Shown: positions 3,690 to 63,910 of the stretch, one piece after another
How positions within the stretch are numbered: position 1 is the first letter of the stretch
Layout of the letters: each line of letters begins with the position of its first letter
DNA from: Streptomyces sp. NBC_00102
Lineage (GTDB): Bacteria > Actinomycetota > Actinomycetes > Streptomycetales > Streptomycetaceae
Length of the DNA stretch: 64,000 nucleotides
Direction of reading: 5' to 3'
NCBI RefSeq assembly: GCF_026343115.1
Contig: NZ_JAPEMC010000001.1
Location: 2,418,001-2,482,000 of the forward strand
Made by a program: the position numbers and the translations under genes
Notes under the pieces: model-generated
What the model saw: the letters and a program-made list of their open reading frames with translations, nothing else
The model's database searches: none
Told to the model about the DNA's origin: nothing

Positions 3690-4226
3690 CTACTTCCCGA
3701 AGCCGAAGGTGTCGGTGCCCTCGACCTTGGCCCGCAGCCGGCGGCCCTTCTCGGTGGCCTGTTCGTTCAGCTCGCCGAGGAAGGCGGTCATCCGGTCGCG
3801 GAGCGCCTCGTCGCCGGTGGCGAGGATGCGGGCGGCGAGGAGTCCGGCGTTGCGCGCACCGCCGACGGAGACGGTGGCCACCGGGATACCGGCGGGCATC
3901 TGCACGATGGAGAGCAGGCTGTCCATGCCGTCCAGGTACTTCAGCGGTACCGGGACGCCGATGACGGGCAGCGGGGTGACGGAGGCCAGCATGCCGGGGA
4001 GGTGGGCGGCGCCGCCGGCGCCCGCGACGATCGCCTTCAGGCCGCGGCCGGCCGCCTGCTCGCCGTACGCGATCATCTCGCGGGGCATCCGGTGGGCGGA
4101 GACGACGTCCACCTCGTACGCGATGCCGAACTCGTCCAGGGCCTGGGCGGCGGCCTCCATCACGGGCCAGTCGGAGTCCGAGCCCATGACGATGCCGACC
4201 ACGGGTGCGGTGCGCGGGTCTGTCAT
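3690..4226 (-). CDS. purE: N5-carboxyaminoimidazole ribonucleotide mutase
   Basis: 178-residue class I PurE, which converts N5-CAIR to CAIR in de novo purine synthesis. It carries the signature [16 protein letters not shown] at the N-terminus, the active-site SAHRMP segment and the C-terminal substrate loop region ([12 protein letters not shown]). The ATG at 4226 overlaps the purK stop as ATGA, which decides the start and indicates translational coupling. Length is normal for an octameric PurE. Confidence 0.97.
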
Positions 4227-5374
4227 TCGGTGATCGTCCCTCGTAGGTAGTCGGCCGCGTGCCGGGCGCGCTCCCGCACGTCCGCCAGATCGTCGCCGTA
4301 GGTGTTGACGTGTCCGACCTTGCGGCCGGGCTTCACGTCCTTGCCGTACATGTGGATCTTGAGCTGCGGGTCTCGGGCCATGCAGTGCAGGTAGCCCTGG
4401 TACATGTCGGGGTAGTCGCCGCCCAGGACGTTGCACATGACCGTCCAGGGGGCGCGCGGGCGCGGGTCGCCGAGCGGCAGGTCGAGCACGGCGCGGACGT
4501 GGTTGGCGAACTGCGAGGTGATCGCGCCGTCCATGGTCCAGTGCCCGGAGTTGTGCGGGCGCATGGCGAGTTCGTTGACGAGGATGCCGGGGGTCCCGTC
4601 GGCGGCACGGGTTTCGAAGAGCTCCACGGCGAGGTGGCCGACGACTCCGAGTTCGGCGCCGATCCGCAGGGCGAGCTGCTGGGCCTCTCCGGCCAGCTTC
4701 TCGTCGAGGTCGGGGGCCGGGGCGATGACGGTGTCGCAGACGCCGTTCACCTGGATGGACTCCACGACCGGGTAGGCGACGGCCTGGCCGTGCGGGGAGC
4801 GGACGATGTTCGCCGCGAGCTCGCGCACGAAGGCGACCTTCTCCTCGGCGAGGACCGGGACTCCGGCGCGGAAGGGCTCGGCGGCGTCCTCCTCGGAGCG
4901 CACCACCCAGACGCCCTTGCCGTCGTAGCCGCCGCGGACCGTCTTGAGTATCACCGGGTAGCCGTCGCCCTCGCCCGCGAAGGCGGTGACGTCGGCGGGG
5001 TCGGTGACGATGCGGTGGCGGGGGCAGGGCACGCCGAGTTCGGTGAGCCGGGCCCGCATCACACCCTTGTCCTGGGCGTGCCGCAGAGCGTCGGGGCCGG
5101 GGCGTACGGCGATGCCGTCCGCTTCGAGGGCCCGCAGGTGCTCGGTGGGCACGTGCTCGTGGTCGAAGGTGATCACGTCGCAGCCGCGCGCGAAGGCGCG
5201 GAGGGTGTCCAGGTCGCGATAGTCGCCGACGACGACCTCGCTCACCACCTGGGCGGCCGAGTCCTGCGGGGTGTCACTGAGCAGCTTGAATGTCAGGCCG
5301 AGGGGGATGCCCGCCTCGTGGGTCATGCGGGCGAGCTGACCGCCGCCGACCATGCCGACTACCGGGAACGTCAC
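4223..5374 (-). CDS. purK: N5-carboxyaminoimidazole ribonucleotide synthase
   Basis: 383-residue ATP-grasp enzyme that makes N5-CAIR from AIR, bicarbonate and ATP, directly before PurE. It opens with [17 protein letters not shown] and contains the ATP-grasp lysine segment [19 protein letters not shown] and the metal-binding stretch [15 protein letters not shown]. The GTG at 5374 is taken as start because the protein then begins with the beta-strand [11 protein letters not shown]; in-frame upstream codons encode non-homologous Arg/Pro-rich sequence. It is first in the operon and divergent from the GtrA gene. Confidence 0.96.
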
Positions 5375-52356: not shown

Positions 52357-53240
52357 GAGCGTTTTCAGCGTTGCCTCTCCAGGGTGAGGACGGCTCTGGC
52401 GATGACGCTCATTCGGTTGGGGCTGATGCGGGATCTGCGGAAGATCTGCCAGGACTTCAGTCGTGCCATGCCTCGTTCGACGGGTGCACGGGCTGCGGAC
52501 AGGGCCCGGTTCGCGGTCTGCTCGGTGGGTGTGAGTTCGCCGCTTGGCGGGCGGCGCTTGGCGGTGGTGACCCAGTCGCCGGCACCGATATAGGCCATGT
52601 CGGCCAGGATCGGGATGCCCTGGCGTTTGCAGATCCGAAGGATCTGGTGGGTGCGGGCGGCTGTCAGGTCGTGGGTTCGGCCCGGAAGTGCCGGCGACAG
52701 CCAGAGGATCTCCCCGCCGGGATCTGTGACGACCTGCACGTTTACTCCGTGCCGCTTGTGTTTCGACGAGTAGTCGGCCCTGCCGTCACCGACGCGGTCG
52801 CACTCGGCGAGCGTGCCGTCCAGGAGAACGAACTCCGGATCGTGTGCGCGCAGCGTCTTCAGCAGGCCGGGTGCCTGCTCGGCGAGCAGGCCGGTGACCG
52901 CGGTGACGTAGGCGTGGGCGGTGCCGACGGATATCCCGAAGGCCGCGGCGATACGGGCCAGCGTTTCGTGGCGGCGCAGGTACACCAGTGCGATCAGCGC
53001 CCGCCGGTGCGGTGGAAGCTTGCACCGGCGGTCACCCTCACGGGTGACGATGAGCATCGTGACCCACTCGACCAGGGCGTGAGGCAGGTCGAGTACGGCA
53101 GGATAGGGAACCAACAGGGCTCCTGTGCTGTTGAGTTGAGACGTCGAACACCTCCCTCAGCGGCACGGGAGCCCTGTCCGTTGCGCACCCCGAACCCACA
53201 CCGCCCCGTCACCCGATCAGTGGCCACTCTGAAAACGCTC
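52357..53240 (-). mobile_element. IS5-family insertion sequence, ISL2-like (884 bp)
   Basis: Terminal inverted repeats GAGCGTTTTCAG (52357-52368) and CTGAAAACGCTC (53229-53240) match perfectly over 12 bp and extend imperfectly inward. The 3-bp direct repeat ACT flanks both ends (52354-52356 and 53241-53243), fitting the ANT duplications of the ISL2 group. A CACTG reading of the flanks is also possible. One intact transposase gene fills it; its stop lies inside the left repeat. Confidence 0.88.
52365..53114 (-). CDS. IS5-family transposase
   Basis: 249-residue DDE transposase. The N-terminal helix-turn-helix is [30 protein letters not shown] (seen as [19 protein letters not shown]). DDE motifs are [12 protein letters not shown] (first Asp), [13 protein letters not shown] (second Asp, in [13 protein letters not shown]) and [14 protein letters not shown] (Glu). 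TTG appears to be the start. No frameshift or truncation, so the element may be active. Confidence 0.9.
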
Positions 53241-53266
53241 ACTGCGACGACGGGACTGCCCGCCAG

Positions 53267-53650
53267 TTATCCGGGTGGGCCGGCGGAGGAGTCGTCTTCG
53301 GGGAAGTTGTTGACCCCTACGCATCCGGCCACGGCGCGCCGGCGCGGGTCGAGATAGAGGTGGTACATCCAACCCGTTTGTTCGCGATCGTCCACGAAGG
53401 CCAGAACAACGTCCCGCTCGCCCATTTCAGCAAGACTCGCCAGGCATTCGGCATCCCCGAAGGTTCGCCCGCCACGCAGGTGCACGATTCGCAACCTCGA
53501 GTAGCACATGCTCCGGATGGACGCCGCCGAATTGGAGAGAGGAGGTGCCTTGAGGTGCGCTCCTGAACGAAGCGCGTCTTTGGCGCGGACGGCAGCTTCG
53601 GAGCTGAACTCGTACGAGGTCAGCAGTTCACTCGCAGACACCTCGTTCAT
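53267..53650 (-). CDS. Hypothetical protein, candidate orphan immunity gene
   Basis: 127 residues from ATG 53650 (MNEVSASELLTSYEFSSEAAVRAKDAL ... GERDVVLAFVDDREQTGWMYHLYLDPRRRAVAGCVGVNNFPEDD). An alternative start at 53719 would add 23 residues. GC content is below the window average. No family recognised. It lies between two IS elements, downstream of the RHS-Imm1 locus and on the same strand, where unlinked immunity genes often collect; that role is a guess. Confidence 0.55.
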   Translation of the reverse strand: MNEVSASELLTSYEFSSEAAVRAKDALRSGAHLKAPPLSNSAASIRSMCYSRLRIVHLRGGRTFGDAECLASLAEMGERDVVLAFVDDREQTGWMYHLYLDPRRRAVAGCVGVNNFPEDDSSAGPPG

Positions 53651-53856
53651 CTCACCCACGGGAAACCTTCGACCAGGTTTCCCCATAGTCAAAGCTGATC
53701 TCCGGGGCGCAAATTTCACCGACTATGAGATGTTCATCCTCAAAGTATCCTTCCATTTGGTAATTAGTGTCGCGTCTCTGAATCATCCTCGACAGCCCCA
53801 CAGGCGGATCGATGTCAGCGGTTCTGATGCGCAGGATTACACCCCCTTCTCCGGCC

Positions 53857-53897
53857 GGTCGTGGCCACCCTCGACGGTGAACGCCTCAGCTTCGGCG
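53857..53897 (+). repeat. Displaced fragment of the hxlR gene
   Basis: 41 bp identical at 39 positions to 51913-51953 inside the hxlR gene (GTCGTGGCCACCCTCGACGG core). It is joined directly to a transposase remnant. It marks a duplication or an ancestral hxlR-like gene destroyed by insertion. Confidence 0.8.
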
Positions 53898-53899
53898 GG

Positions 53900-54312
53900 C
53901 CGTCGCGATCCCGACGCGGGGCAAGAAGAAGCACCACGGGATGAACGTGCAGGTCCTCGCGGATCCAGCCGGTCGACTGATCTGGGCCTCGGACGCACTA
54001 CCCGGCACCGTGCACGATCTGACCGCGGCCCGGACCCGCGGCATTCCCGCCGCCCTGGCCGCCGACGACATCAAGTGCTGGGCGGACAAGGCGTATCAGG
54101 GTGCAGGCCCTGCTGTCCGCGTCCCGTTCCGGGGCAAGAACCTGCGCGGCTGGTGCCGGCGCCACAACCGCGATCACGCCAAGATCCGCAGCCTCGGCGA
54201 ACGCGCCATGGCCACCCTCACATGCCGGCGCCTCCTGCGGAAGCTCCGCTGCATCACCACTTGGATCACAGCCGTCGTCCGCGCCATCGCCGCCCTCGAA
54301 CTCGCCACCTGA
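53900..54312 (+). pseudogene. Transposase remnant (C-terminal half)
   Basis: The frame reads AVAIPTRGKKKHHGMNVQVLADPAGRLIWASDALPGTVHDLTAAR and continues to CITTWITAVVRAIAALELAT before the stop. It retains the second DDE region (IKCWADKAYQGAG) and the Glu helix (KIRSLGERAMATL) of an IS5/DDE_Tnp_4-type transposase. The N-terminal half, including the first Asp, is absent, and 5' sequence switches abruptly to the hxlR fragment. Non-functional. Confidence 0.82.
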
Positions 54313-54328
54313 TCAAGATGGAAAAGGC

Positions 54329-54687
54329 TCACTCGACAGCAAGACATTCCAACCAGCGATCCAGCCCCTCCTCCTCCATATCACTCGTCATACAGTCCCT
54401 GATCCGAAGAAACTCACGCAACACGAATCGGATCCGCATGAGCTGCTGAACGCGAACCGGAGAAATCGATTCTGCACCCATCGATCGAATCGAGGCAATT
54501 TCGGACCTCAAGTTCTCCAGGCTTTCACCCTCGCCGATCAGGTCTTGAACGAATTCCCTCCAAATCCCATCCACACCATCAGGGATCTCCACACTCGCGA
54601 TCCCCTCCGACGTCATTGCGAGTTTGACAATTACCTCGCGATGAAGAGTTTCCCCCCAGGGCAACCCGCCACACCTCCGCGCAGATC
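54329..54687 (-). pseudogene. Small unknown gene disrupted by IS insertion
   Basis: The downstream frame encodes GETLHREVIVKLAMTSEGIASVEIPDG and runs to DMEEEGLDRWLECLAVE before the stop. The ATG at 54616 would give 95 residues. Upstream, another frame reads ICAEVWRVALG up to a G6 run (54652-54657 on the + strand as C6); dropping one G fuses the two as VALGETLHREV. The IS at 54691 cuts the gene a few codons from a plausible GTG start now at the far side of the element. No family recognised. Confidence 0.6.
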
Positions 54688-54699
54688 TTAGAGGGTGTC

Positions 54700-55176
54700 T
54701 CACGTGGCGAGCTTCGCGAGTCTCTTGTAGCAGGTCAGGGCTGCGGCGAGGCCGAGGAAGGCGAGGAAGTGGCTGCCTTTTCGTTCGTACCGGACGGTGA
54801 GGCGGCGGTAGCCGAAGAGCCAGGAGATCGACCGCTCGATCTTCCAGCGGTGCCGGCCGAGCCGTTCGCCTGACTCGATTCCGGGACGGGCGATCCGTGG
54901 GGCGAGGTTCCGGCTGCGGAGCCAGCGGAGGTGTTCCGCTGAGTGGTACGCCTTGTCCGCGCGGATTTTCACCGGCTTCCTCCGGCGGGGTCCGCGCCGC
55001 GAGCGGACGGCGGGTATCCCGAGGATCAGCGGCTTGAACGCCTGACTGTCGTGCAGGTTCGCACCCGACACCGCCACGGCCAACGGCAGGCCCTGGGCCT
55101 CGGACAGCACGTGCAGCTTGCTGCCCTTCTTGCCCCGATCGACCGGATTCGACCCGGTCAGCGAGCCCCCCTTTTC
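54700..55176 (-). CDS. IS1031-like transposase, C-terminal frame (orfB)
   Basis: Frame reached by a -1 shift from orfA: GEKGGSLTGSNPVDRGKKGSKLHVL, then VSGANLHDSQAFKPLI (second Asp region), KIRADKAYHSAEHLRWL and the Glu helix GRHRWKIERSISWLFGYRRL. It has no start of its own at a ribosome site and is expected only as a fusion with orfA. Confidence 0.85.
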   Translation of the reverse strand, partial: EKGGSLTGSNPVDRGKKGSKLHVLSEAQGLPLAVAVSGANLHDSQAFKPLILGIPAVRSRRGPRRRKPVKIRADKAYHSAEHLRWLRSRNLAPRIARPGIESGERLGRHRWKIERSISWLFGYRRLTVRYERKGSHFLAFLGLAAALTCYKRLAKLAT

Positions 55177-55517
55177 GCCCGCACCGACGCGGCATCGACG
55201 ATCGCGGACGACCAGTCCAACTCGCCCCTGACGCCGAGCTCGTCGAGCACCGCCCGGTGCAGCCTGCGCCACAACCCGGCCTCGGTCCACGCACTGAACC
55301 GGCGGTGCGCGGTGGCCGGCGAGACACCGAACGACTCCGGCAGATACCGCCACGCGCAGCCGCTGGTCAGCACATAGACCACGGCCGTGAACACCGCCCG
55401 CTCGTCCACCGGAGCCGTACCACCACCCTGCGGACGGGAGTTGAACCTCGGCAACAACGGAGCAGTCAGCTCCCACAGTTCGTCCGGCACCAGCCGACGC
55501 GACAGATCAGCACCCAC
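55158..55517 (-). CDS. IS1031-like transposase, N-terminal frame (orfA)
   Basis: 119 residues: MGADLSRRLVPDELWELTAPLLP, the Tnp_2/DUF4096-type helix region (VYVLTSGCAWRYLPESFGVSPATAHRRF) and the first catalytic Asp in WSSAIVDAASVRAKRGAR. It ends just past an A4-G6 run (55175-55166), a slippery site where a -1 shift enters orfB. This is the common IS5-family arrangement. Confidence 0.87.
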   Translation of the reverse strand: MGADLSRRLVPDELWELTAPLLPRFNSRPQGGGTAPVDERAVFTAVVYVLTSGCAWRYLPESFGVSPATAHRRFSAWTEAGLWRRLHRAVLDELGVRGELDWSSAIVDAASVRAKRGAR

Positions 55518-55599: not shown

Positions 55600-56043
55600 C
55601 TACCAGCTCGTCAACGGTTGCCAATTAACACAAGCAGGCCGCTGTCCGCCGGAAGAGATAAACTCCCTGGCCGCTTGACGCACGAGGGAAATCGGAATTT
55701 CAGAACATGCCGGAAACTCTGTCATATGCCCTTGAATGTAGTACGCAGGATCATTCCTGCCTTCAGGTGCCCCTAGGGTCACCGAATTGCCACTGCCATC
55801 CATGAAAGAAAGAACTCCCACTTGGAGATCCCTGTCCACCCCCACCATGAGTTCATGGTCCGGGTAGCCAGACGGCAGTACTTCACGCTCAAGAGAGTGG
55901 ATCTGTGCCAGGGTCTCGCGGATCGGTCCACTCTGATCCACCAGGAGCTTGTCGATCACAGGATCGATATCCTCAGGCGCATAAAGGATCTCCGGCTTGT
56001 CGCCACTCTCAACCCTGTATCGCGCCTCAGCTCTCGCCCTCAC
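55600..56043 (-). CDS. Imm1-family immunity protein
   Basis: 147 residues from GTG 56043. The region GQVGVLSFMDG-like (LQVGVLSFMDGSGNSVTLG), PAYYIQGHMTEFP and the closing SLVRQAAREFISSGGQRPACVNWQ match the Imm1 family, known as the partner of SCP1.201/DddA-like deaminase toxins. The GTG lies one base after the toxin stop codon, with GGCGGAG inside the toxin's last codons as ribosome site, so translation is probably coupled. Longer starts at 56061 or 56127 would overlap the toxin. It should bind and block the adjacent toxin domain in the cytoplasm. Confidence 0.85.
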   Translation of the reverse strand: MRARAEARYRVESGDKPEILYAPEDIDPVIDKLLVDQSGPIRETLAQIHSLEREVLPSGYPDHELMVGVDRDLQVGVLSFMDGSGNSVTLGAPEGRNDPAYYIQGHMTEFPACSEIPISLVRQAAREFISSGGQRPACVNWQPLTSW

Positions 56044-56044
56044 G

Positions 56045-59000
56045 TTAACTCCGCCTTCCATATGGTCGACCACTTCCCACCCCAGGCCAATGTACCGTGA
56101 GGGTGCGATTACCCCCAAGGAGGACATTCAGCACCTCATGGCATCCAGCCCTCACTGAGCACGGGCCGGTCGGGAAGTTGATGAACAGATCTGCGTGCCC
56201 AATTCCGTCCCGCTCCATGATGGCGGCGAATTTCTGCTCAACATCCACAGCACGCCCGGATCGACTTCGTCCCGGCAGTACTCCCGCCCCCTGTAGTGTG
56301 GAATTGACCCAGTCGACCAGGTCGCCATCGTTTCCGCGGCCGCTCACCAATTCGTATCTCTGGCCATTGTCTGCCACGGCATGACCAGTCGTTGGACCAC
56401 TGCCCGGGTACTCCGGGAGACGGGCCAGCTCCTCGTCGATGTCAAGCGACGAGCCGCCGCAGTTGTGAACGAGGACCGGCGTGGCGCCTGCCACCACATA
56501 GTACGTGTGGAGGTCATTGACGGTGAGGTTGTGGACGGTCGCGTCCGGGGCCGTCCAGCGGTCAATAGCCGTGATCTGGACGTAGGTGCCGGCACTGGTC
56601 CGGAGCCATTCGCCGGACTTCAGGTCGGTTGCGTCGAGCCACTTGCCCACGGCTTCCACCCAGAAGGGATGGTTGTACGTCGCCGTGACCGAGGCTGTCT
56701 TGTCGCCCTTGTCGCCATCGGTGTCGATGGTGACCTTGACCAGGTGCTTGACGCCCTTACCCGTGATCTCGGCTGTGACGACCTCGGACGTCGTCTCACC
56801 GGTCTCGGGGTCGGTGGCGAGAACCTCGTCGCCGTTCTTCACCTTCTCGATCGGCTTCGACGAACCGTCGGCCATCACCACCAGGGTGCCCGGCACGAAG
56901 CTGTTGATCTCGCAGCTTTCACCGCTGGACCCGCCCCCGGCGTCTCCTGCCTTGCCGTTCTCCTTCTTGTTCTTCCCGGAGACCTTCTGGGCGACGCTCT
57001 TGACCTTCTCGTTGCCCTTGGCCAACGCCTTCTTGGTCTTCTGGAGCGGGTTCCCGGTCTTCTCCGCGCCCTTCTTGGCAGCTCTGATCGCTGCCTGCTT
57101 CGCCTGCTTCGCCGCCGCTTGCGCAGCTCTCTTGGCGGCTGCCTTCGCGGCGGCCTTCGCCGCTCGCGCCGCTTCACGCGCGGCCTTAGCGGCAGCGATG
57201 ATCTTGCGGGCCTTCTCCTGGGCCTTGCGCCAGGCGCTGATCGCGCTCATGGTCTTGTCGACCGCGCGCCAGATCTTCTTGCCCTTACTGAAGACCGAGG
57301 ACCACGGGATGGCGTCGATGATCAGCGAGCCGCAGGCCCACATGTCGCCGCGGGAGAAGCAGCTGACGACGTCGTTCCAGCCGATGAACTCCTTGAACAC
57401 CGCCCAGCCGACATTCATGATGATGTCGGCCATCGAAGTGTTGAGCTGGTTGTTGGCCCATGCCTCTTCGGCTGTTTCGGCACCACCACCGCCGCCACCA
57501 CCTCCGCCGCCGCCCGCGTCGAGCATCAGGCCGCTCGGGTCGGCGAAGGTGACGGGGTTGTTCTCGCAGTAGACGTACCCGTTCATCTGGACCGGGTCGT
57601 TCAGGTCGAGCACTGGGTCGGCGGAGATGAAGCGGCCGGTCTCGGGGTCGTACTCGCGTGCACCGAGGTGGACCAGGCCGGTGGAGTTGTCGTCGTCGCC
57701 GCCGATGTAGCCCTTGTGAGAGAGCCAGTTGGCGCTCTCCTTACGGGCCACTCCGAACGGGTCCGTCTTCTCGAACTTCACCGCGTTGCCCGCGTCGAGC
57801 TTGACGTTGATGTAGGCGGTGCCGTTCTGGTCGGTCACCTGCATCGACAGCTGTTCGCCGCCACTGCCCTGCTTGAGTCGCATCACCACCGGGCCGCCGG
57901 CCTGCTGGTAGTAGCGCTCCGCGTAGTTCGGCGTGCCGTCCACGTTCACCGAGACCGTGGCCTCGCCGAGGTAGAGGGTCCGGGTGCTGGCGGTGATCGC
58001 CATCAGCCTTTCGCCGGACGGGCCGTAGACGTACTTCGTCTCGTTGGCCGGGGCCCAGGACTGGGCGGCCCCGTTCGTGTCGCAGGTGCCGAGGGTGAGG
58101 TCGGTACCCGCGGCCGAGTTGGCGCCGGGGACGGCCAGGCACTTGCCGGACGCGACGTGCTTGAGCTTGTGTCCGGACTCGACCACCGTCCACTGCTGGG
58201 CCGCGGCCCCCGTGCACTTGCCGATCACGACAGCCGTGCCGTCAGCCGTCGCACCGTCCTTGGGCTCCGCGCACTGCTGAAGGACCTTCAGAGCGCCCTT
58301 GGAGGAGTCGGTGGGCGTGGCGCCCTCGATCCTCAGTTGCTGGGCGCGGGTGCCGTTGCAGCTGTAGAGCTGGAGCGCGGTCCCCGCGACTGTCGAGGAC
58401 GACGACAGGTCGATGCACTTGCCGGACAGGCCCATCCAGGCGCCCGCGCCGCTTTCGCCGAAGCCGGTGACCGTCTCCAGGTTGCCGTCCCAGGTCCAGG
58501 TCAGGCCCTGCTGGTCGCCGCCGTCCGTGCGGGTCTCGGTGTTGCCCGCCTTGTCGTACGTCCGGGTGGAGGCCTCGGTGACCTTGGCCCCGGCGTCCGT
58601 CAGGTAGGTGGAGGACATCCCGGTCAGGGTGTGCGGCTGGGTGCCGTCCGCCTTGCCGTAGGTGTAGTCGGTCGTCGCGTCCTTCGCCGGGTCCAGCACC
58701 GTGGTGGTGGTGCCGACCGTGCCGAGGTAGTGATCGACCTCCTTCTTCCGGTTGCCCATCGCGTCGTACGTGTACGACTTGTGGTAACCGTCCCCGTCCG
58801 CACCGATGGTCGGCGCGCTCGGAACACCGGCCGAGGTCACCGCGCACGCGGTGTCGGAGGCCGTCCACGCCTCGGTGAGCTGACCGAGGACGTCGTAACT
58901 GAAGCACTGGCGATCGGTCTTGGAATCGACCGCGTCCTCGATCTTGGTGACGTTGCCCGCCGCGTCGTACCCGTAGGAACGGACGTTGACCCGGTGACCG

Positions 59001-62000
59001 AGCACCGTCGTGGTGTCGCTGGTGGACTCGCGGTCGGTGTACGACTTCGTCAGCTCACCGGTGCGCTCGTCGTACAGGTTGGTCGTCCACACCCGGTTCG
59101 GGTTCTCACCCGTGACCGCGCGCAGGACCTGGCCGTAGACGCTGTAGTCGGTGTCCGCGTTGTACCAGTCGATACCCGACGTCGAGACCGGCAGGCCCTC
59201 TTCGTTATACCGGGTGACGATCTTCTCCGGGGAGAGACCGCCCGCCGCAGGCAGCGAAGCCGACTGCAACTGCCCGGACTTGCTGTACTCGTACGTGTAG
59301 GCGTACGTCTCCTGCAGGCCGTACTGCGCGGCGATCGTCGCCGGCAGCGTCAGTTTGGTGCCGGTCGGCTGGTACTCGGCGGTGTAGCCGGTGACCGTGC
59401 TGGTGTACGGCAGTCCGTCCGTGTAGCGGGTGGCGGTGGCAGGCTGGCCGAGGCCGCCGATGACCGTGTCGTACGTGGCCGAGGTCAGCAGCTCGCCCGA
59501 GGACGAGTCCTTCCGCTGCTCGACCGTCCGGCCCAGTTCGTCGTACTTCGTCCAGACCTTGTTCTGCTTGCTGTCCGTGACCGTTTCGGGCCGGCCCAGT
59601 ACGTCGTACGTGGTGCTGCTGGTGCCCGTGTCCGGGTCGGTGGCCGTGAGCTGCCGGCCGAGCGCGTCGTAGGTGTAGGACCAGACGTTCTTGGACGAGT
59701 CCTCAGCCTTGGTCTGGTCGCCGCGCGCGTCGTAGGAGTACGTCGTCGACCGGTACGCGCTGCGCGCCGCGTCCGTGAAGGTGTCGACCCGGACCGTCCG
59801 GCCCTGGGCGTCGCTCCAGCTGCGCTGGGCGGCTCCGCCGGTGGGCGGGATGACGGTGGACCAGTCGTACCCGTAGTCGTACCGGGTCGCCTTGGTGGGC
59901 ACGGTGGCGCCCGCCATGTACGGCGTCTCCGACAGGACACGGCCCTGGCCGTCATACTTGTAGAGGGTCGCGTTCGGGATCTTGAAGTCGGAGTCGACCT
60001 CGTACATCACCGGCTGCGGCTCGCCCTCGGCGTAGTAACCGTTGTTGGTACGGGCGATGGTGCCGTTGGCGCTGTAGATGGTGTCGGTGATCAGGCGTCC
60101 GTCGCCGACCGCCGGCTCCTGGCGCTGGCGCTCACGGCCGAGGCCGTCGTACAGCACGATGGAGTTGTCGTAGCCACTGCCGTCGTCCTTCAGCGTGGAG
60201 CTGGTGACGCTGACCGGCTGGCCCTCTTCGGTGCTGTACTCGAACTTGACCGAGGGGTCCTCGGTGGCGGCCTGCGAGGTGCCCCACCCTGCGGTGGTGC
60301 GGCCCAGGGCGTCGTACTGGTAGAGGGTCGTGCGCCCGTTGGCGTCTACGTCCTTCAGCGTGGTGCCGCGGCCGGGCTCCAGGTAGCTGGTGGAGGTCTG
60401 GTGCTTCGCGTTCTCCTCGGTGATCGAGTAGACCTGGCCGGTGGTCGGCGTGTAGGTGGTCTTGTCGGTCTCGTTCTTCGCGTTGGTGGTCGTCAGGACA
60501 CGGCCGAGGGAGTCGTAGGTGAGCGTGGCGGTCTGCTGCCAGGCGTCACCCGTCCCGTTCAGCGACCAGGTGGTGGTGGCCGAACCCGAGGTCGGGGTGG
60601 CACCGAACGCCAGGTCGTCGTAGGCGACGCGGGAACCGGCGATGCGGGCGGAGACCGGAGCGGTCGCTGCGGCGGCACAGGTACCGGCCGTCGTCAGCGT
60701 CTCCTTGTCCAGTCCGATCAGGTTCTTCGACGTGTTGTGGACGTAGCTGAGGACCGAGCACGCCTCGTCGCCGGTCTTGCCCGTGTCACCGAGGGACTCC
60801 ACGGTGAGCGGCAGCCCGTAGGTGTCGTCGTACGTGGTGTTGGTGCGCAAGGACCGCCACTGGCGCGTCTCGTTCACGTCGTACGTGCCCGAGGAACGCG
60901 TGGTGGTGATGGTGTGGTCGTCCAGCACCCGGTACGCCTTGAGGGCCGGGATGCCGCCGTCGCGGGTCCTGCTCGCCAGCTCCACGACCTTCGGGTAGTC
61001 CACCGACCGGGAGGTAAGAGTGCCGTTGTACCCCGTGTAGTCGAGCTCTTCCGCCGTACGGCCCTGGAGGGCGAGGTCGTCGTCGGCGATCTTCGCGCCG
61101 TCGTTGTCGAGAACGGTCACCGAGCGCTTCGAGCCGCCGGGAAGCGGGTCGCCGTTCATGCCGCGGAAGAAGGTGACCTCGGACATGGACTTCGCGCTGC
61201 CCTCGTACGTGTCCGAGGAGTCGGCGCCGCTGACCGTACGGACCCGGCTGAAGCCGCGCCACTGGTCGTAGGTGCGGGTCTTCTTCTTCGAGAACTCGGC
61301 CTGGTTCAGCGCCCAGGCTCCCTTGGAGTCGTTGTCGTCGCCGTACTCGTACGAGGTGGTGACGGTCGCGACGCCCTGAACGGCAGGGAGCTCTTCGACG
61401 TGGTCGACGACGTACTTGTTGAACCACTCGATCGACTCGTCGGCCTTGTCCGGGTCCGGGTGCCAGTACGCCGGGTAGCAGAGACCGGTGTTGGACTCGA
61501 CCGCCGGGAAGCCGGAGCCGGACTTGCAGGCGCCGGTGGGTTCGCGGTAGTCGACGAAGGTCTCGCCGCCGTACTCGCTGATGATCCGCTCGATCCGCAG
61601 CCGGTCGAACGTCGGGTTCGGGTCCTTCTCACCGCGGCGCACACGGTTCGGCATCGGCTGCGTGTTGGCCACGAAAGTGACCGGGTTCAGAGTTTCGGAT
61701 TCACCGTCGGTGCCGTAGCCGGCTCGCGTGATCGAGTCGAGCCAGAGAGCGGTTCCCTCGTCGGTGCGCTCGGACGGCAGTGACTGCTGAAGGGTCCAGG
61801 AGTCGACCTTGGAGAGGGCGGTGGAGCCCTCGGTGCGCTGGGTGGAGGTGGTCACCTGGGCCAGGCGCTTGCGGGTCCAGAACGTCGGGATCGGGACGTA
61901 GCAGTCCTTGCCGGACTCGCAGAGGAGGTCGGCGGGGGTGTCGTACCAGATGTGGTTCTTCGCGAAGTCGCCCGAGGTGAAGTTCTCCTCGGAGCAGGCT

Positions 62001-63910
62001 ATGCCGTCCTCGACGAAGCACCGCTCGTCGACCGAGAAGTCGACCCGGGCGAGCGGCGCGGCGCTGTAGAGGGTGCTGGCGCGCTGGCCGTAGTCGATGC
62101 GCTTGAGGTAGCCGCCCCGGTCGTAGGAGACCGGGGTCTTGAACTTCATGTTCTTGGCGTAGAGGGACTTCTCCTTGTCCCACCACAGGGACATGGCGCT
62201 GCCGGAGGTGTCGACGACGTAGTCGAGGTTCCAGCGCCAGCCGCGGGTGCAGAAGGACTTGGCGAAGTCGGCGTCGTAGCAGTCCTCGCCGGGCTGGTTG
62301 CCCGAGACGGGCACGGTCAGCACGGAGTTGGTGACCGGGTCGTCGGCGGCGGTGCCGTTGTCGCTCCAGCCGGGGAGCTTGTGCTTGCCGAAGTAGTAGA
62401 TCGTGCCGTCGCGGGTGGTGACCTCCCAGTACTCGCCCAGGGAGTCGCCGTTGCCCAGCGAGGTGTCCTTCAGCAGCCGCACCCGCGAGCCGTCACCGTT
62501 GGCGGTGACCCACTCGTTGCCGGTCTCGTCGTCGTCCTTGACCAGCTCGGTGGTCGTACCACCCAGGGTCAGGGTCGCGTTCTCCGAGCCGTCGCAGAGG
62601 TCGCTCGTCTTGCGCTTGGTGTTGTTGCCGCCCTCGGTGTCGTCACGGCAGGACTTGTACGTCCGCGTGATCGAACCCGGGTTGTAGTCCCAGCCGTCAC
62701 CGATCCACGACGCCTGGTTGTTCGTCGCCGACGTACGCCCGTCCACACCCTGCGAGCTGTACCCGAAGGACAGGCTCGGGGCCGGCCCGCCGGGGACGCT
62801 GGGCGCCTGGAGGTTGTACGTGTACGAGAACCCGCCCGAGTTACCACCGGCCGACCAGGAACCGGCGCTGGCCAGGGGCGTCGCGGAGAAATCGCCCTTC
62901 GCGCCACTGCCCGCCGAGGTCGCCATGAACACCGAAGAGCCCGAGTTGCTGGCCGCGCTCAGCGCAGCCACCCGGGTCAGCGGGGACGACCCGGAGGTCG
63001 GCTTGACGTACAGAGCGGTGGAGACCGTGCCGGTCGAGGTGGCCTCGGCCGTGGTCACCGTGGTGCCGGTGTCCGTCAGGTCCGCGACGTCGAGAGTCGC
63101 CTCGATGCGGCGCTCACCGTCGAGGACGCCGTCACCTTCGACGTCGGTGTCCTGCGGCGCGACGACGTTGGTGGTGTCCACCTCGGTCGGCTCCGCACAG
63201 CCCTCGACATCGGGCGTGGTCAGGAAGCACTCGGGGAACTTGACCAGCTGGAGCCGGTCCGCCCAGTTCGCCCCGTACAGCTCCGCGAAGTCGGTGTAGT
63301 CGATCGCCACCACCGCGTCGCCGGTCGCACCGGCCGGCGGGGTGACCGTGAAGACCAGGCCCTCGACGTCGGCCGCCGAGGACTCGGCCTGGCTCGCCAG
63401 AGCGACCTGCCAGTCACCCTCCAGCGCCGTCGTCTCCGCAGGGGTCGCCTCCGCCGGAGCACCGATCCCGATCGGCAACGTGCTGATCTGCTGCGTCTCC
63501 CCCGGCGCCAGCGCGTCCACCGTCCCGGTCGCCGGCGTCGTGATGCCGGTCCCCTCCGGAGCGGTGATCTTCTTCGGCTCGTAGTCCTCCGCCGGAGGGA
63601 CCTCGGGAGTCGTGAGTTCGGCGAGACCGCCACCGTCCTCACCTGCCACCAGTTCGGCGGCGGGCAGGTCGACGAGGTCGACGCCGGCCCGGTCGTTCGG
63701 GGGCGGCGCGGCGTACGAGGCCGGGAGCATACCGATCGTCACGGCGGTCGCCGCGACGACCACCACACCGACGCGCGCCCGACGCCGACGACGGCGCTGC
63801 TCCTCGGTGCCGGGGAGATACCCCCGGCCACTCCATGAAAGCGATCCCCACACGACGGCCGCGGCCCCCCACAGTCGATCCCGACCACCGGCCGAACCAT
63901 GCGGAAACAC
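56045..63910 (-). CDS. RHS/YD-repeat polymorphic toxin with HINT and DddA-like deaminase domain
   Basis: 2621 residues. The N-terminus is basic (RRRRRRARVG) followed by a signal-like helix VVVVAATAVTIGMLPASYAA, so export is likely. A long SpvB/RHS-type shell with many YD repeats follows. A ricin-B lectin insert is at ~1810-1960 (GKCIDLSSSSTVAGTALQLY). The RHS core ending GRFISADPVLDLNDPVQMNG lies near 2090-2130, then a Lys/Ala-rich helical stretch. A HINT domain runs from Cys2333 to His-Asn2483-Cys2484. The last 137 residues are the toxin: Asp2556-Val-Glu2558 and Cys2584-x5-Cys2590 form a deaminase zinc site. The exact start is uncertain (no good ribosome site at 63910). Confidence 0.88.
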   Translation of the reverse strand: MFPHGSAGGRDRLWGAAAVVWGSLSWSGRGYLPGTEEQRRRRRRARVGVVVVAATAVTIGMLPASYAAPPPNDRAGVDLVDLPAAELVAGEDGGGLAELTTPEVPPAEDYEPKKITAPEGTGITTPATGTVDALAPGETQQISTLPIGIGAPAEATPAETTALEGDWQVALASQAESSAADVEGLVFTVTPPAGATGDAVVAIDYTDFAELYGANWADRLQLVKFPECFLTTPDVEGCAEPTEVDTTNVVAPQDTDVEGDGVLDGERRIEATLDVADLTDTGTTVTTAEATSTGTVSTALYVKPTSGSSPLTRVAALSAASNSGSSVFMATSAGSGAKGDFSATPLASAGSWSAGGNSGGFSYTYNLQAPSVPGGPAPSLSFGYSSQGVDGRTSATNNQASWIGDGWDYNPGSITRTYKSCRDDTEGGNNTKRKTSDLCDGSENATLTLGGTTTELVKDDDETGNEWVTANGDGSRVRLLKDTSLGNGDSLGEYWEVTTRDGTIYYFGKHKLPGWSDNGTAADDPVTNSVLTVPVSGNQPGEDCYDADFAKSFCTRGWRWNLDYVVDTSGSAMSLWWDKEKSLYAKNMKFKTPVSYDRGGYLKRIDYGQRASTLYSAAPLARVDFSVDERCFVEDGIACSEENFTSGDFAKNHIWYDTPADLLCESGKDCYVPIPTFWTRKRLAQVTTSTQRTEGSTALSKVDSWTLQQSLPSERTDEGTALWLDSITRAGYGTDGESETLNPVTFVANTQPMPNRVRRGEKDPNPTFDRLRIERIISEYGGETFVDYREPTGACKSGSGFPAVESNTGLCYPAYWHPDPDKADESIEWFNKYVVDHVEELPAVQGVATVTTSYEYGDDNDSKGAWALNQAEFSKKKTRTYDQWRGFSRVRTVSGADSSDTYEGSAKSMSEVTFFRGMNGDPLPGGSKRSVTVLDNDGAKIADDDLALQGRTAEELDYTGYNGTLTSRSVDYPKVVELASRTRDGGIPALKAYRVLDDHTITTTRSSGTYDVNETRQWRSLRTNTTYDDTYGLPLTVESLGDTGKTGDEACSVLSYVHNTSKNLIGLDKETLTTAGTCAAAATAPVSARIAGSRVAYDDLAFGATPTSGSATTTWSLNGTGDAWQQTATLTYDSLGRVLTTTNAKNETDKTTYTPTTGQVYSITEENAKHQTSTSYLEPGRGTTLKDVDANGRTTLYQYDALGRTTAGWGTSQAATEDPSVKFEYSTEEGQPVSVTSSTLKDDGSGYDNSIVLYDGLGRERQRQEPAVGDGRLITDTIYSANGTIARTNNGYYAEGEPQPVMYEVDSDFKIPNATLYKYDGQGRVLSETPYMAGATVPTKATRYDYGYDWSTVIPPTGGAAQRSWSDAQGRTVRVDTFTDAARSAYRSTTYSYDARGDQTKAEDSSKNVWSYTYDALGRQLTATDPDTGTSSTTYDVLGRPETVTDSKQNKVWTKYDELGRTVEQRKDSSSGELLTSATYDTVIGGLGQPATATRYTDGLPYTSTVTGYTAEYQPTGTKLTLPATIAAQYGLQETYAYTYEYSKSGQLQSASLPAAGGLSPEKIVTRYNEEGLPVSTSGIDWYNADTDYSVYGQVLRAVTGENPNRVWTTNLYDERTGELTKSYTDRESTSDTTTVLGHRVNVRSYGYDAAGNVTKIEDAVDSKTDRQCFSYDVLGQLTEAWTASDTACAVTSAGVPSAPTIGADGDGYHKSYTYDAMGNRKKEVDHYLGTVGTTTTVLDPAKDATTDYTYGKADGTQPHTLTGMSSTYLTDAGAKVTEASTRTYDKAGNTETRTDGGDQQGLTWTWDGNLETVTGFGESGAGAWMGLSGKCIDLSSSSTVAGTALQLYSCNGTRAQQLRIEGATPTDSSKGALKVLQQCAEPKDGATADGTAVVIGKCTGAAAQQWTVVESGHKLKHVASGKCLAVPGANSAAGTDLTLGTCDTNGAAQSWAPANETKYVYGPSGERLMAITASTRTLYLGEATVSVNVDGTPNYAERYYQQAGGPVVMRLKQGSGGEQLSMQVTDQNGTAYINVKLDAGNAVKFEKTDPFGVARKESANWLSHKGYIGGDDDNSTGLVHLGAREYDPETGRFISADPVLDLNDPVQMNGYVYCENNPVTFADPSGLMLDAGGGGGGGGGGGAETAEEAWANNQLNTSMADIIMNVGWAVFKEFIGWNDVVSCFSRGDMWACGSLIIDAIPWSSVFSKGKKIWRAVDKTMSAISAWRKAQEKARKIIAAAKAAREAARAAKAAAKAAAKRAAQAAAKQAKQAAIRAAKKGAEKTGNPLQKTKKALAKGNEKVKSVAQKVSGKNKKENGKAGDAGGGSSGESCEINSFVPGTLVVMADGSSKPIEKVKNGDEVLATDPETGETTSEVVTAEITGKGVKHLVKVTIDTDGDKGDKTASVTATYNHPFWVEAVGKWLDATDLKSGEWLRTSAGTYVQITAIDRWTAPDATVHNLTVNDLHTYYVVAGATPVLVHNCGGSSLDIDEELARLPEYPGSGPTTGHAVADNGQRYELVSGRGNDGDLVDWVNSTLQGAGVLPGRSRSGRAVDVEQKFAAIMERDGIGHADLFINFPTGPCSVRAGCHEVLNVLLGGNRTLTVHWPGVGSGRPYGRRS

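What the first reader, a model, noticed from the sequence alone, without database searches (positions are those of the whole stretch)
56043..63910. RHS polymorphic toxin carrying a DddA/SCP1.201-like deaminase warhead with adjacent Imm1 immunity
Seen: signal-like N-terminus, YD-repeat shell, HINT domain ending His-Asn-Cys at 2482-2484, and a 137-residue tail with DVE ... PCSVRAGC and TLTVHWPG. Known: this motif order is that of SCP1.201-like deaminases (the DddA family), and Imm1 proteins are their usual partners. Inference: a self-cleaved, interbacterial nucleic-acid cytosine deaminase toxin in a streptomycete, guarded by a coupled immunity gene. Its target (dsDNA, ssDNA or RNA) is open, so it is a candidate new base-modifying enzyme.
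Basis: partly seen in the sequence, partly recalled or inferred. Interest (0 to 1): 0.92.

Follow-up and report, generated by a model that had tools for sequence, protein, structure and literature searches.

The report
Secreted DddA-like deaminase toxin with immunity
A soil streptomycete carries a giant protein, probably secreted, whose detachable tip looks like a DNA-base-editing toxin of the DddA kind, with its antidote gene next door; the family is known, but this branch has replaced a metal-holding histidine by aspartate, and I found no report of that version being tested.

Summary
A 2,621-residue ORF (63910-56045, minus strand) combines RHS repeats, a ricin-type lectin, a PT-HINT domain ending HNC, and a tip matching Pfam PF14428 DddA-like (62.9 bits, cut-off 25). 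The next gene matches Imm1 (80.4 bits, cut-off 22.4). The tip's predicted fold matches DddA; the Imm1 model's only strong matches are DddA's immunity chains. The same genome holds a second copy of the shell, 91% identical, with another tip (YwqJ-like deaminase, marginal, plus SUKH-3); nucleotide similarity ends right after the HNC codons. This is a classical polymorphic toxin with an exchanged warhead. A tested relative, UmbC1 of S. coelicolor, mutates DNA C:G to T:A and is paired with Imm1, so the kind is known. A supported clade (14 Asp rows, 1 His row) keeps Glu and both Cys, and 15 of 16 of its loci have an Imm1-like neighbour. The tip also lacks DddA's Phe-bearing CxxC loop and SPKK tail. 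I infer an active DNA cytosine deaminase with an Asp-Cys-Cys metal site, more likely acting on single-stranded than duplex DNA. Activity and substrate are untested.

The parts
56045..63910 (-). RHS polymorphic toxin, 2,621 aa, intact ORF (GTG start)
63707..63796 (-). Arg-rich then hydrophobic N-terminal segment (residues 39-68), signal-peptide-like
   Evidence: read by eye; no predictor was run
58055..58426 (-). Ricin-type beta-trefoil lectin (residues 1829-1952) within the YD-repeat shell
   Evidence: PF00652 70.2 bits, cut-off 29
57527..57763 (-). RHS repeat-associated core (residues 2050-2128)
   Evidence: TIGR03696 70.5 bits, cut-off 32.5
56462..56914 (-). HINT autoprocessing domain, candidate Cys1 (2333) to Asn2483
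   Evidence: PF07591 2344-2483, 71.2 bits; Cys2333 and HNC placed
56459..56467 (-). His-Asn-Cys junction 2482-2484; predicted cleavage between Asn2483 and Cys2484; nucleotide similarity to the second shell copy ends at 56458
56048..56461 (-). DddA-like deaminase tip (residues 2484-2621); GC3 63.0% against 92.4% in the shell
   Evidence: PF14428 62.9 bits; fold; composition
56237..56245 (-). Asp2556-Val-Glu2558: Asp at the usual His metal-ligand position, and the predicted catalytic Glu
56141..56161 (-). Cys2584-x5-Cys2590, the other two predicted metal ligands
55600..56043 (-). Imm1 immunity protein, 147 aa from GTG 56043 (an ATG at 56061 would give 153 aa and overlap the toxin); GC3 58.4%
   Evidence: PF14430 80.4 bits (on the 153-aa version); fold resembles the DddA immunity chain; start codons; homologs
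54700..55517 (-). Insertion-sequence transposase pieces (DUF4096, DDE_Tnp_1) directly downstream; neighbours, not part of the system

Best explanation
An interbacterial polymorphic toxin and its immunity gene. The RHS shell with its embedded lectin is secreted (inferred from the N-terminus), may attach to competitor cells through the lectin (inferred), and its HINT domain cuts between Asn2483 and Cys2484 (inferred from motifs), freeing a 138-residue tip. The tip has the DddA-type deaminase fold (predicted structure) and most likely converts cytosine to uracil in the DNA of the recipient, using Glu2558 and a metal held by Asp2556, Cys2584 and Cys2590 (inferred from alignment). Because the DddA duplex-intercalating loop and the SPKK tail are missing, single-stranded DNA is the likelier substrate (inferred). 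Imm1 from the next gene blocks the active-site face as DddI does (inferred from matching fold). The tip plus Imm1 is an exchangeable cassette: shell and junction are shared with a second copy in the same genome that carries another tip and another immunity gene (shown at sequence level).
Against: No activity, cleavage, secretion or toxicity was tested. The usual metal-ligand His is Asp, so activity cannot be assumed from relatives. One clade locus (L063 = L067) has no Imm1 found downstream. Several clade tips are broken by frameshift or truncation (L034, L041/L065, L016/L064), so part of the clade is decaying. The substrate inference rests on missing DddA features, not on a positive sign for ssDNA. 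The YwqJ assignment of the twin's tip is barely over cut-off.
Confidence: 0.8

Rival explanations
1. The tip is an inert relic: losing the His ligand abolished metal binding, and the cassette persists passively.
For: His to Asp at a metal ligand; broken relatives exist.
Against: The same residue, Asp, stands there in 14 of 15 clade rows, with Glu and both Cys in 15 of 15; Imm1-like genes beside 15 of 16 clade loci; the window ORF is intact, and two near copies keep the tip at 98% (P0003) and 96% (P0004, S. halstedii) identity. A dead site would not be expected to hold one residue across a clade.
Confidence: 0.1
2. Active, but not a DNA cytosine deaminase: RNA, a free nucleotide or another base is the substrate.
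For: The deaminase fold serves many substrates; weaker structural rows include free-nucleoside deaminases and DYW RNA editors. The Asp ligand and changed loop could accompany a substrate change.
Against: The top sequence and structure matches are DNA deaminases or constructs solved with DNA. UmbC1, with the same cassette plan, acts on DNA (PMC11062931, passages). A commentary on Huang 2023 says 45 of 76 PF14428 domains scored in an ssDNA editing reporter (PMC10847098, part 1 of 2).
Confidence: 0.15
3. A double-stranded DNA deaminase working just like DddA.
For: Same Pfam family and fold; Imm1 has the DddI fold.
Against: DddA needs Phe1375 (F1375A inactive; PMC10442228, passages), which lies in its C-G-F-C loop (residues as aligned; numbering of the match recalled); the window has Cys-SVRAG-Cys without an aromatic. 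Of 8 homologs tested by Mi et al., 4 of 4 with SPKK-related motifs were active on dsDNA and 4 of 4 without showed little or none (PMC9935910, passages); the window tip has no such motif.
Confidence: 0.15
4. HINT splices like an intein, leaving the tip joined to the shell, rather than cutting it free.
For: A Cys is present at both junctions (2333 and 2484), as protein splicing needs (recalled).
Against: HINT next to toxin tips is read as a release autopeptidase (PMC3482391, passages); the +1 residue varies in clade members (VHNC, VHNS, VHND), so a nucleophile at +1 is not always present.
Confidence: 0.1

Closest known systems
UmbC1 toxin domain with UmbD1 (Imm1), Streptomyces coelicolor umbrella particle
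   Same: HINT, PF14428-like tip with extended Cys loop, Imm1 downstream, streptomycete (PMC11062931 passages; profile match to 8w20_A, an entry deposited by that paper; that the chain is UmbC1 is inferred)
   Different: 8w20_A carries H-A-E; UmbC1 sits on an ALF-repeat umbrella shell and is shown to mutate DNA; the window uses an RHS/lectin shell and DVE
DddA with DddI, Burkholderia cenocepacia
   Same: Predicted folds of both toxin and immunity match 6u08
   Different: DddA has HVE and CxxC with the intercalating Phe1375 and SPKK-related motifs and is a T6SS effector (PMC10587121, PMC10442228, PMC9935910, PMC7901873, passages or listing); the window has DVE, Cx5C, no aromatic in the loop and no SPKK motif
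Sdd proteins (ssDNA deaminases of the SCP1.201/PF14428 branch, Huang 2023)
   Same: Same Pfam family outside the dsDNA sub-branch (commentary PMC10847098)
Own-genome twin: same shell with YwqJ-like tip and SUKH-3
   Same: Shell 91% identical, same HINT junction
   Different: Different tip (PF14431, marginal) and immunity family

Membership tests
SCP1.201-like / DddA-like family in the broad sense (PF14428) | Profile match over the curated cut-off | tested here: met
   56.9 and 62.9 bits, cut-off 25
SCP1.201-like / DddA-like family in the broad sense (PF14428) | Deaminase fold nearest to DddA-type chains | tested here: met
SCP1.201-like / DddA-like family in the broad sense (PF14428) | [HCD]xE plus two downstream Cys (toxin deaminases as tabulated in PMC3482391) | tested here: met
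   DVE with C2584 and C2590, met through the D option; spacing is Cx5C where the table writes CxxC
DddA proper (dsDNA deaminase) | HVE and CxxC, the filter used by PMC10587121 | tested here: not met
   DVE and Cx5C
DddA proper (dsDNA deaminase) | Intercalating Phe in the Cys loop and C-terminal SPKK-related motif | tested here: not met
   Loop SVRAG has no aromatic; no [ST]P[KRQ][KRQ] in the tip
DddA proper (dsDNA deaminase) | Deaminates cytosine in duplex DNA | not testable with these tools
   needs an assay
Imm1 immunity family (PF14430) | Profile match, position next to an SCP1.201-type toxin | tested here: met
   80.4 bits, cut-off 22.4; gene abuts the toxin stop
Imm1 immunity family (PF14430) | Binds and inhibits its toxin | not testable with these tools
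   only fold similarity to DddI
RHS polymorphic toxins | YD repeats, RHS core, processing domain, constant shell with variable tip | tested here: met
   shell shared with a different tip
Umbrella toxins (UmbC) | ALF repeats | tested here: not met
   no ALF match among the 11 Pfam rows at E <= 10
Umbrella toxins (UmbC) | umbA and umbB partner genes | not tested
   -

The most novel reading that the evidence does not exclude
The DxE clade is a natural set of deaminases with an Asp-Cys-Cys metal site. In DddA the His ligand (His1345) also hydrogen-bonds the base 5' of the target (PMC10442228, passages), so Asp there would change both metal chemistry and sequence-context reading. An Arg three residues before the Asp (14 of 15 clade rows, 0 of 26 others) may balance the extra negative charge (speculative). 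One clade member with His (L068) offers a natural comparison.
Probability: 0.35. Interest if true: 0.62.

Novelty: new variant of a known kind. Interest (0 to 1): 0.42.

Why it matters
At least one published search for DddA-like enzymes kept only proteins with HVE and CxxC (64 of 531; PMC10587121, passages), a filter that this clade does not pass. If it is active, it shows that the ligand His of a nucleic-acid deaminase can be Asp, and lets one ask what that does to sequence context. The twin shells in one genome are also a clear natural example of warhead exchange at a HINT junction, with two different deaminase-type tips on one carrier.

Tried and rejected
A sequence-only search of solved structures with the tip alone found nothing meaningful (one row, E 1.4); the alignment profile was needed. 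NCBIfam has no hit for the tip or the immunity protein. No phage relative of note (one 35-bit row at E 0.6). Phylum-wide sampling for PF14428 found the window's genome and one other (2 of 396), so wider sampling was not pursued. An AU test of all 14 Asp rows as one group without the His row gave p 0.118: neither shown nor rejected, so whether L068's His is a reversion or the older state is open; within the clade the node that excludes P0012 has only 86/92 support. The idea that another conserved His replaces the lost ligand was considered: the H of TVHW is present in most clade rows but not in L066 (N) and L032 (R), and also occurs in HxE relatives, so it was dropped. An umbrella-toxin reading was dropped for lack of ALF repeats. 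The Imm1 profile is narrow: on HxE loci it gave 14-27 bits or nothing, and missed an annotated Imm1 beside L070, so a miss does not show absence; it was built from homologs of the window's own Imm1, so the window's hit is circular.

Literature on DxE: searches. Most results were seen as listings only. Among the papers opened (passages of PMC3482391, PMC10587121, PMC9935910, PMC11062931, PMC13274773, PMC7901873, PMC10442228, PMC9990079; part 1 of 2 of PMC10847098), only PMC3482391 mentions D at this position ([HCD]xE; 'H[occasionally D]xE'). Iyer 2011 is not held and supplements could not be read, so prior testing of a DxE member is not excluded.

Rows dropped from the 41-row tree: fragments or frameshifted L013, L014, L019, L020, L027, L029, L034, L064, L065, P0013; duplicates L007 (of L006), L060 (of L033), L067 (of L063); loci L001, L015, L016, L018, L030, L035-L041 and L044 were skipped as shorter views of other loci kept or listed here. 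Not given to the tree: P0002-P0005 (P0002 is the window's own protein, P0003-P0004 near copies of it, P0005 is L031) and P0007 (same contig and gene as L058). Of 37 places, 30 were fetched as loci and read; 7 were not. The tree's bootstrap had not fully settled.
Full report
What is there. The minus-strand ORF 63910-56045 encodes 2,621 residues without a stop. In order it holds a signal-like N-terminus (by eye), YD repeats (RHS_repeat, 9 stretches), an embedded ricin-type lectin at 1829-1952, an RHS core at 2050-2128, a PT-HINT domain to 2483, and a PF14428 match at 2503-2610. His-Asn-Cys is at 2482-2484 and a candidate HINT Cys1 at 2333. The next gene, read from GTG 56043 or ATG 56061, is Imm1 at 80.4 bits. 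I prefer GTG 56043 because a purine-rich stretch precedes it and a close homolog (P0016) is 147 aa; but annotated starts vary (P0015, 95% identical, is 175 aa). PF14428 has a single match in the whole genome.

The tip is an exchanged cassette. The genome holds a second copy of the shell, 91% identical over residues 2-2483. In a comparison of window 57000-55001 with that locus, nucleotide similarity (86.8% over 546 columns) ends at 56458, the first base after the Cys2484 codon. Its tip matches YwqJ-deaminase, barely over cut-off (26.3 against 25.9), and the next ORF is SUKH-3 (80.9 bits). GC at third positions falls from 92.4% (shell, residues 1-2330) and 87.6% (HINT) to 63.0% (tip) and 58.4% (Imm1). 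Transposase pieces lie just downstream. Relatives of this tip sit on other carriers: a lectin protein with a coiled-coil-like stretch (by eye) in Kitasatospora (P0005), a LamG-RHS protein in Nonomuraea (P0006), and RHS or HINT proteins on Streptomyces plasmids. Of 14 clade sequences checked, 6 have a HINT-type junction before the tip and 8 show none within 140 residues upstream of the motif (one of the 8, L057, is a 122-residue open frame with no room for one).

The aspartate. In DddA relatives the first metal motif is HxE. Here it is D2556-V-E2558. Of 30 Streptomyces loci read (of 37 places) from a search of 392 genomes (29 with PF14428), 5 have Asp, 24 have His and 1 lacks the motif in its open frame. 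In a 41-row tree built without that column, the 14 Asp rows and one His row (L068, S. californicus plasmid) form one clade at 97/94 support. Within it Glu is kept in 15 of 15 and both Cys in 15 of 15; an Arg three residues before the Asp occurs in 14 of 15 and in 0 of 26 others; Gln after the Glu in 14 of 15 and 0 of 26. These counts follow one clade and are not independent events. Imm1-like genes, found with a profile built from homologs of the window's own Imm1, lie on the same strand after the tip in 15 of 16 distinct clade loci, the window included; Pfam was run on two of the others and confirmed both (L034, L068), and three plasmid records name the gene Imm1 (L066, L068, L069). On HxE loci the same profile gave 14-27 bits or nothing, so the Imm1 of this clade is a group of its own. 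The exception, L063 = L067, has a next annotated ORF of 167 aa with no Pfam match. Conservation of Asp with partner immunity argues for a working enzyme, not a relic.

Substrate. DddA inserts Phe1375 into the minor groove, and its ligand His1345 hydrogen-bonds the -1 thymine (PMC10442228, passages). The window has Cys-SVRAG-Cys and Asp instead. SPKK-related motifs went with dsDNA activity in 4 of 4 homologs and their absence with little or none in 4 of 4 (PMC9935910, passages); the window tip has none. A commentary on Huang 2023 reports 45 of 76 PF14428 domains active in an ssDNA editing reporter (PMC10847098, part 1 of 2 read). I therefore lean to ssDNA, without direct evidence. UmbC1, the nearest tested relative I found, made C:G to T:A changes in E. 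coli lacking ung (PMC11062931, passages), which shows that such a cassette acts on DNA but not in which form.

What is known already. Zhang 2012 lists toxin deaminases with [HCD]xE, names Imm1 as partner of SCP1.201 deaminases, and notes RicinB domains embedded among RHS repeats (PMC3482391, passages). So neither the architecture, the pairing nor an Asp at this position in some toxin deaminase is new. What I did not find in the papers opened after the searches is a description or test of this PF14428 sub-clade. Sun 2023 kept only HVE plus CxxC candidates (64 of 531; PMC10587121, passages), a filter this clade does not pass.

Verdict. Real, correctly recognised, a member of a known toxin class with one feature, the Asp ligand clade, that makes a sharp and simple experiment possible.

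Noticed in passing
G000 contig C1 1743141-1750586 (L055): Second copy of the same RHS/lectin/HINT shell with a YwqJ-like deaminase tip (marginal score) and a SUKH-3 gene.
   Followed up: yes
L068 (NZ_CP070247.1), tip about 3980-4378: A member of the Asp clade that carries His (RADHVEQK) and a longer Cys loop (Cx7C), with Imm1 beside it.
   Followed up: partly
L067 = L063, after position 4393 of L067: A DAE tip with no recognisable Imm1 downstream; the next annotated ORF (167 aa) has no Pfam match and may be a different immunity protein.
   Followed up: partly
L034, L065/L041: Frameshifted clade tips next to an Imm1-like gene, as if immunity outlives the toxin.
   Followed up: no
G113 contig C11 13057-22867: Three partial PF14428 matches within 10 kb, two with internal stops; looks like a decaying array of tips.
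   Followed up: no
G000 C2 33159-38828 and C1 352113-357833: Two further RHS proteins (2,360 and 2,201 aa open frames) with 33-43% identity to this shell in the matched pieces; their tips were not examined.
   Followed up: no
window 52365-55517: Three transposase regions with Pfam matches (DDE_Tnp_4 at 52365-53114 and 53941-54312; DUF4096 and DDE_Tnp_1 at 54700-55517) downstream of the Imm1 gene.
   Followed up: partly
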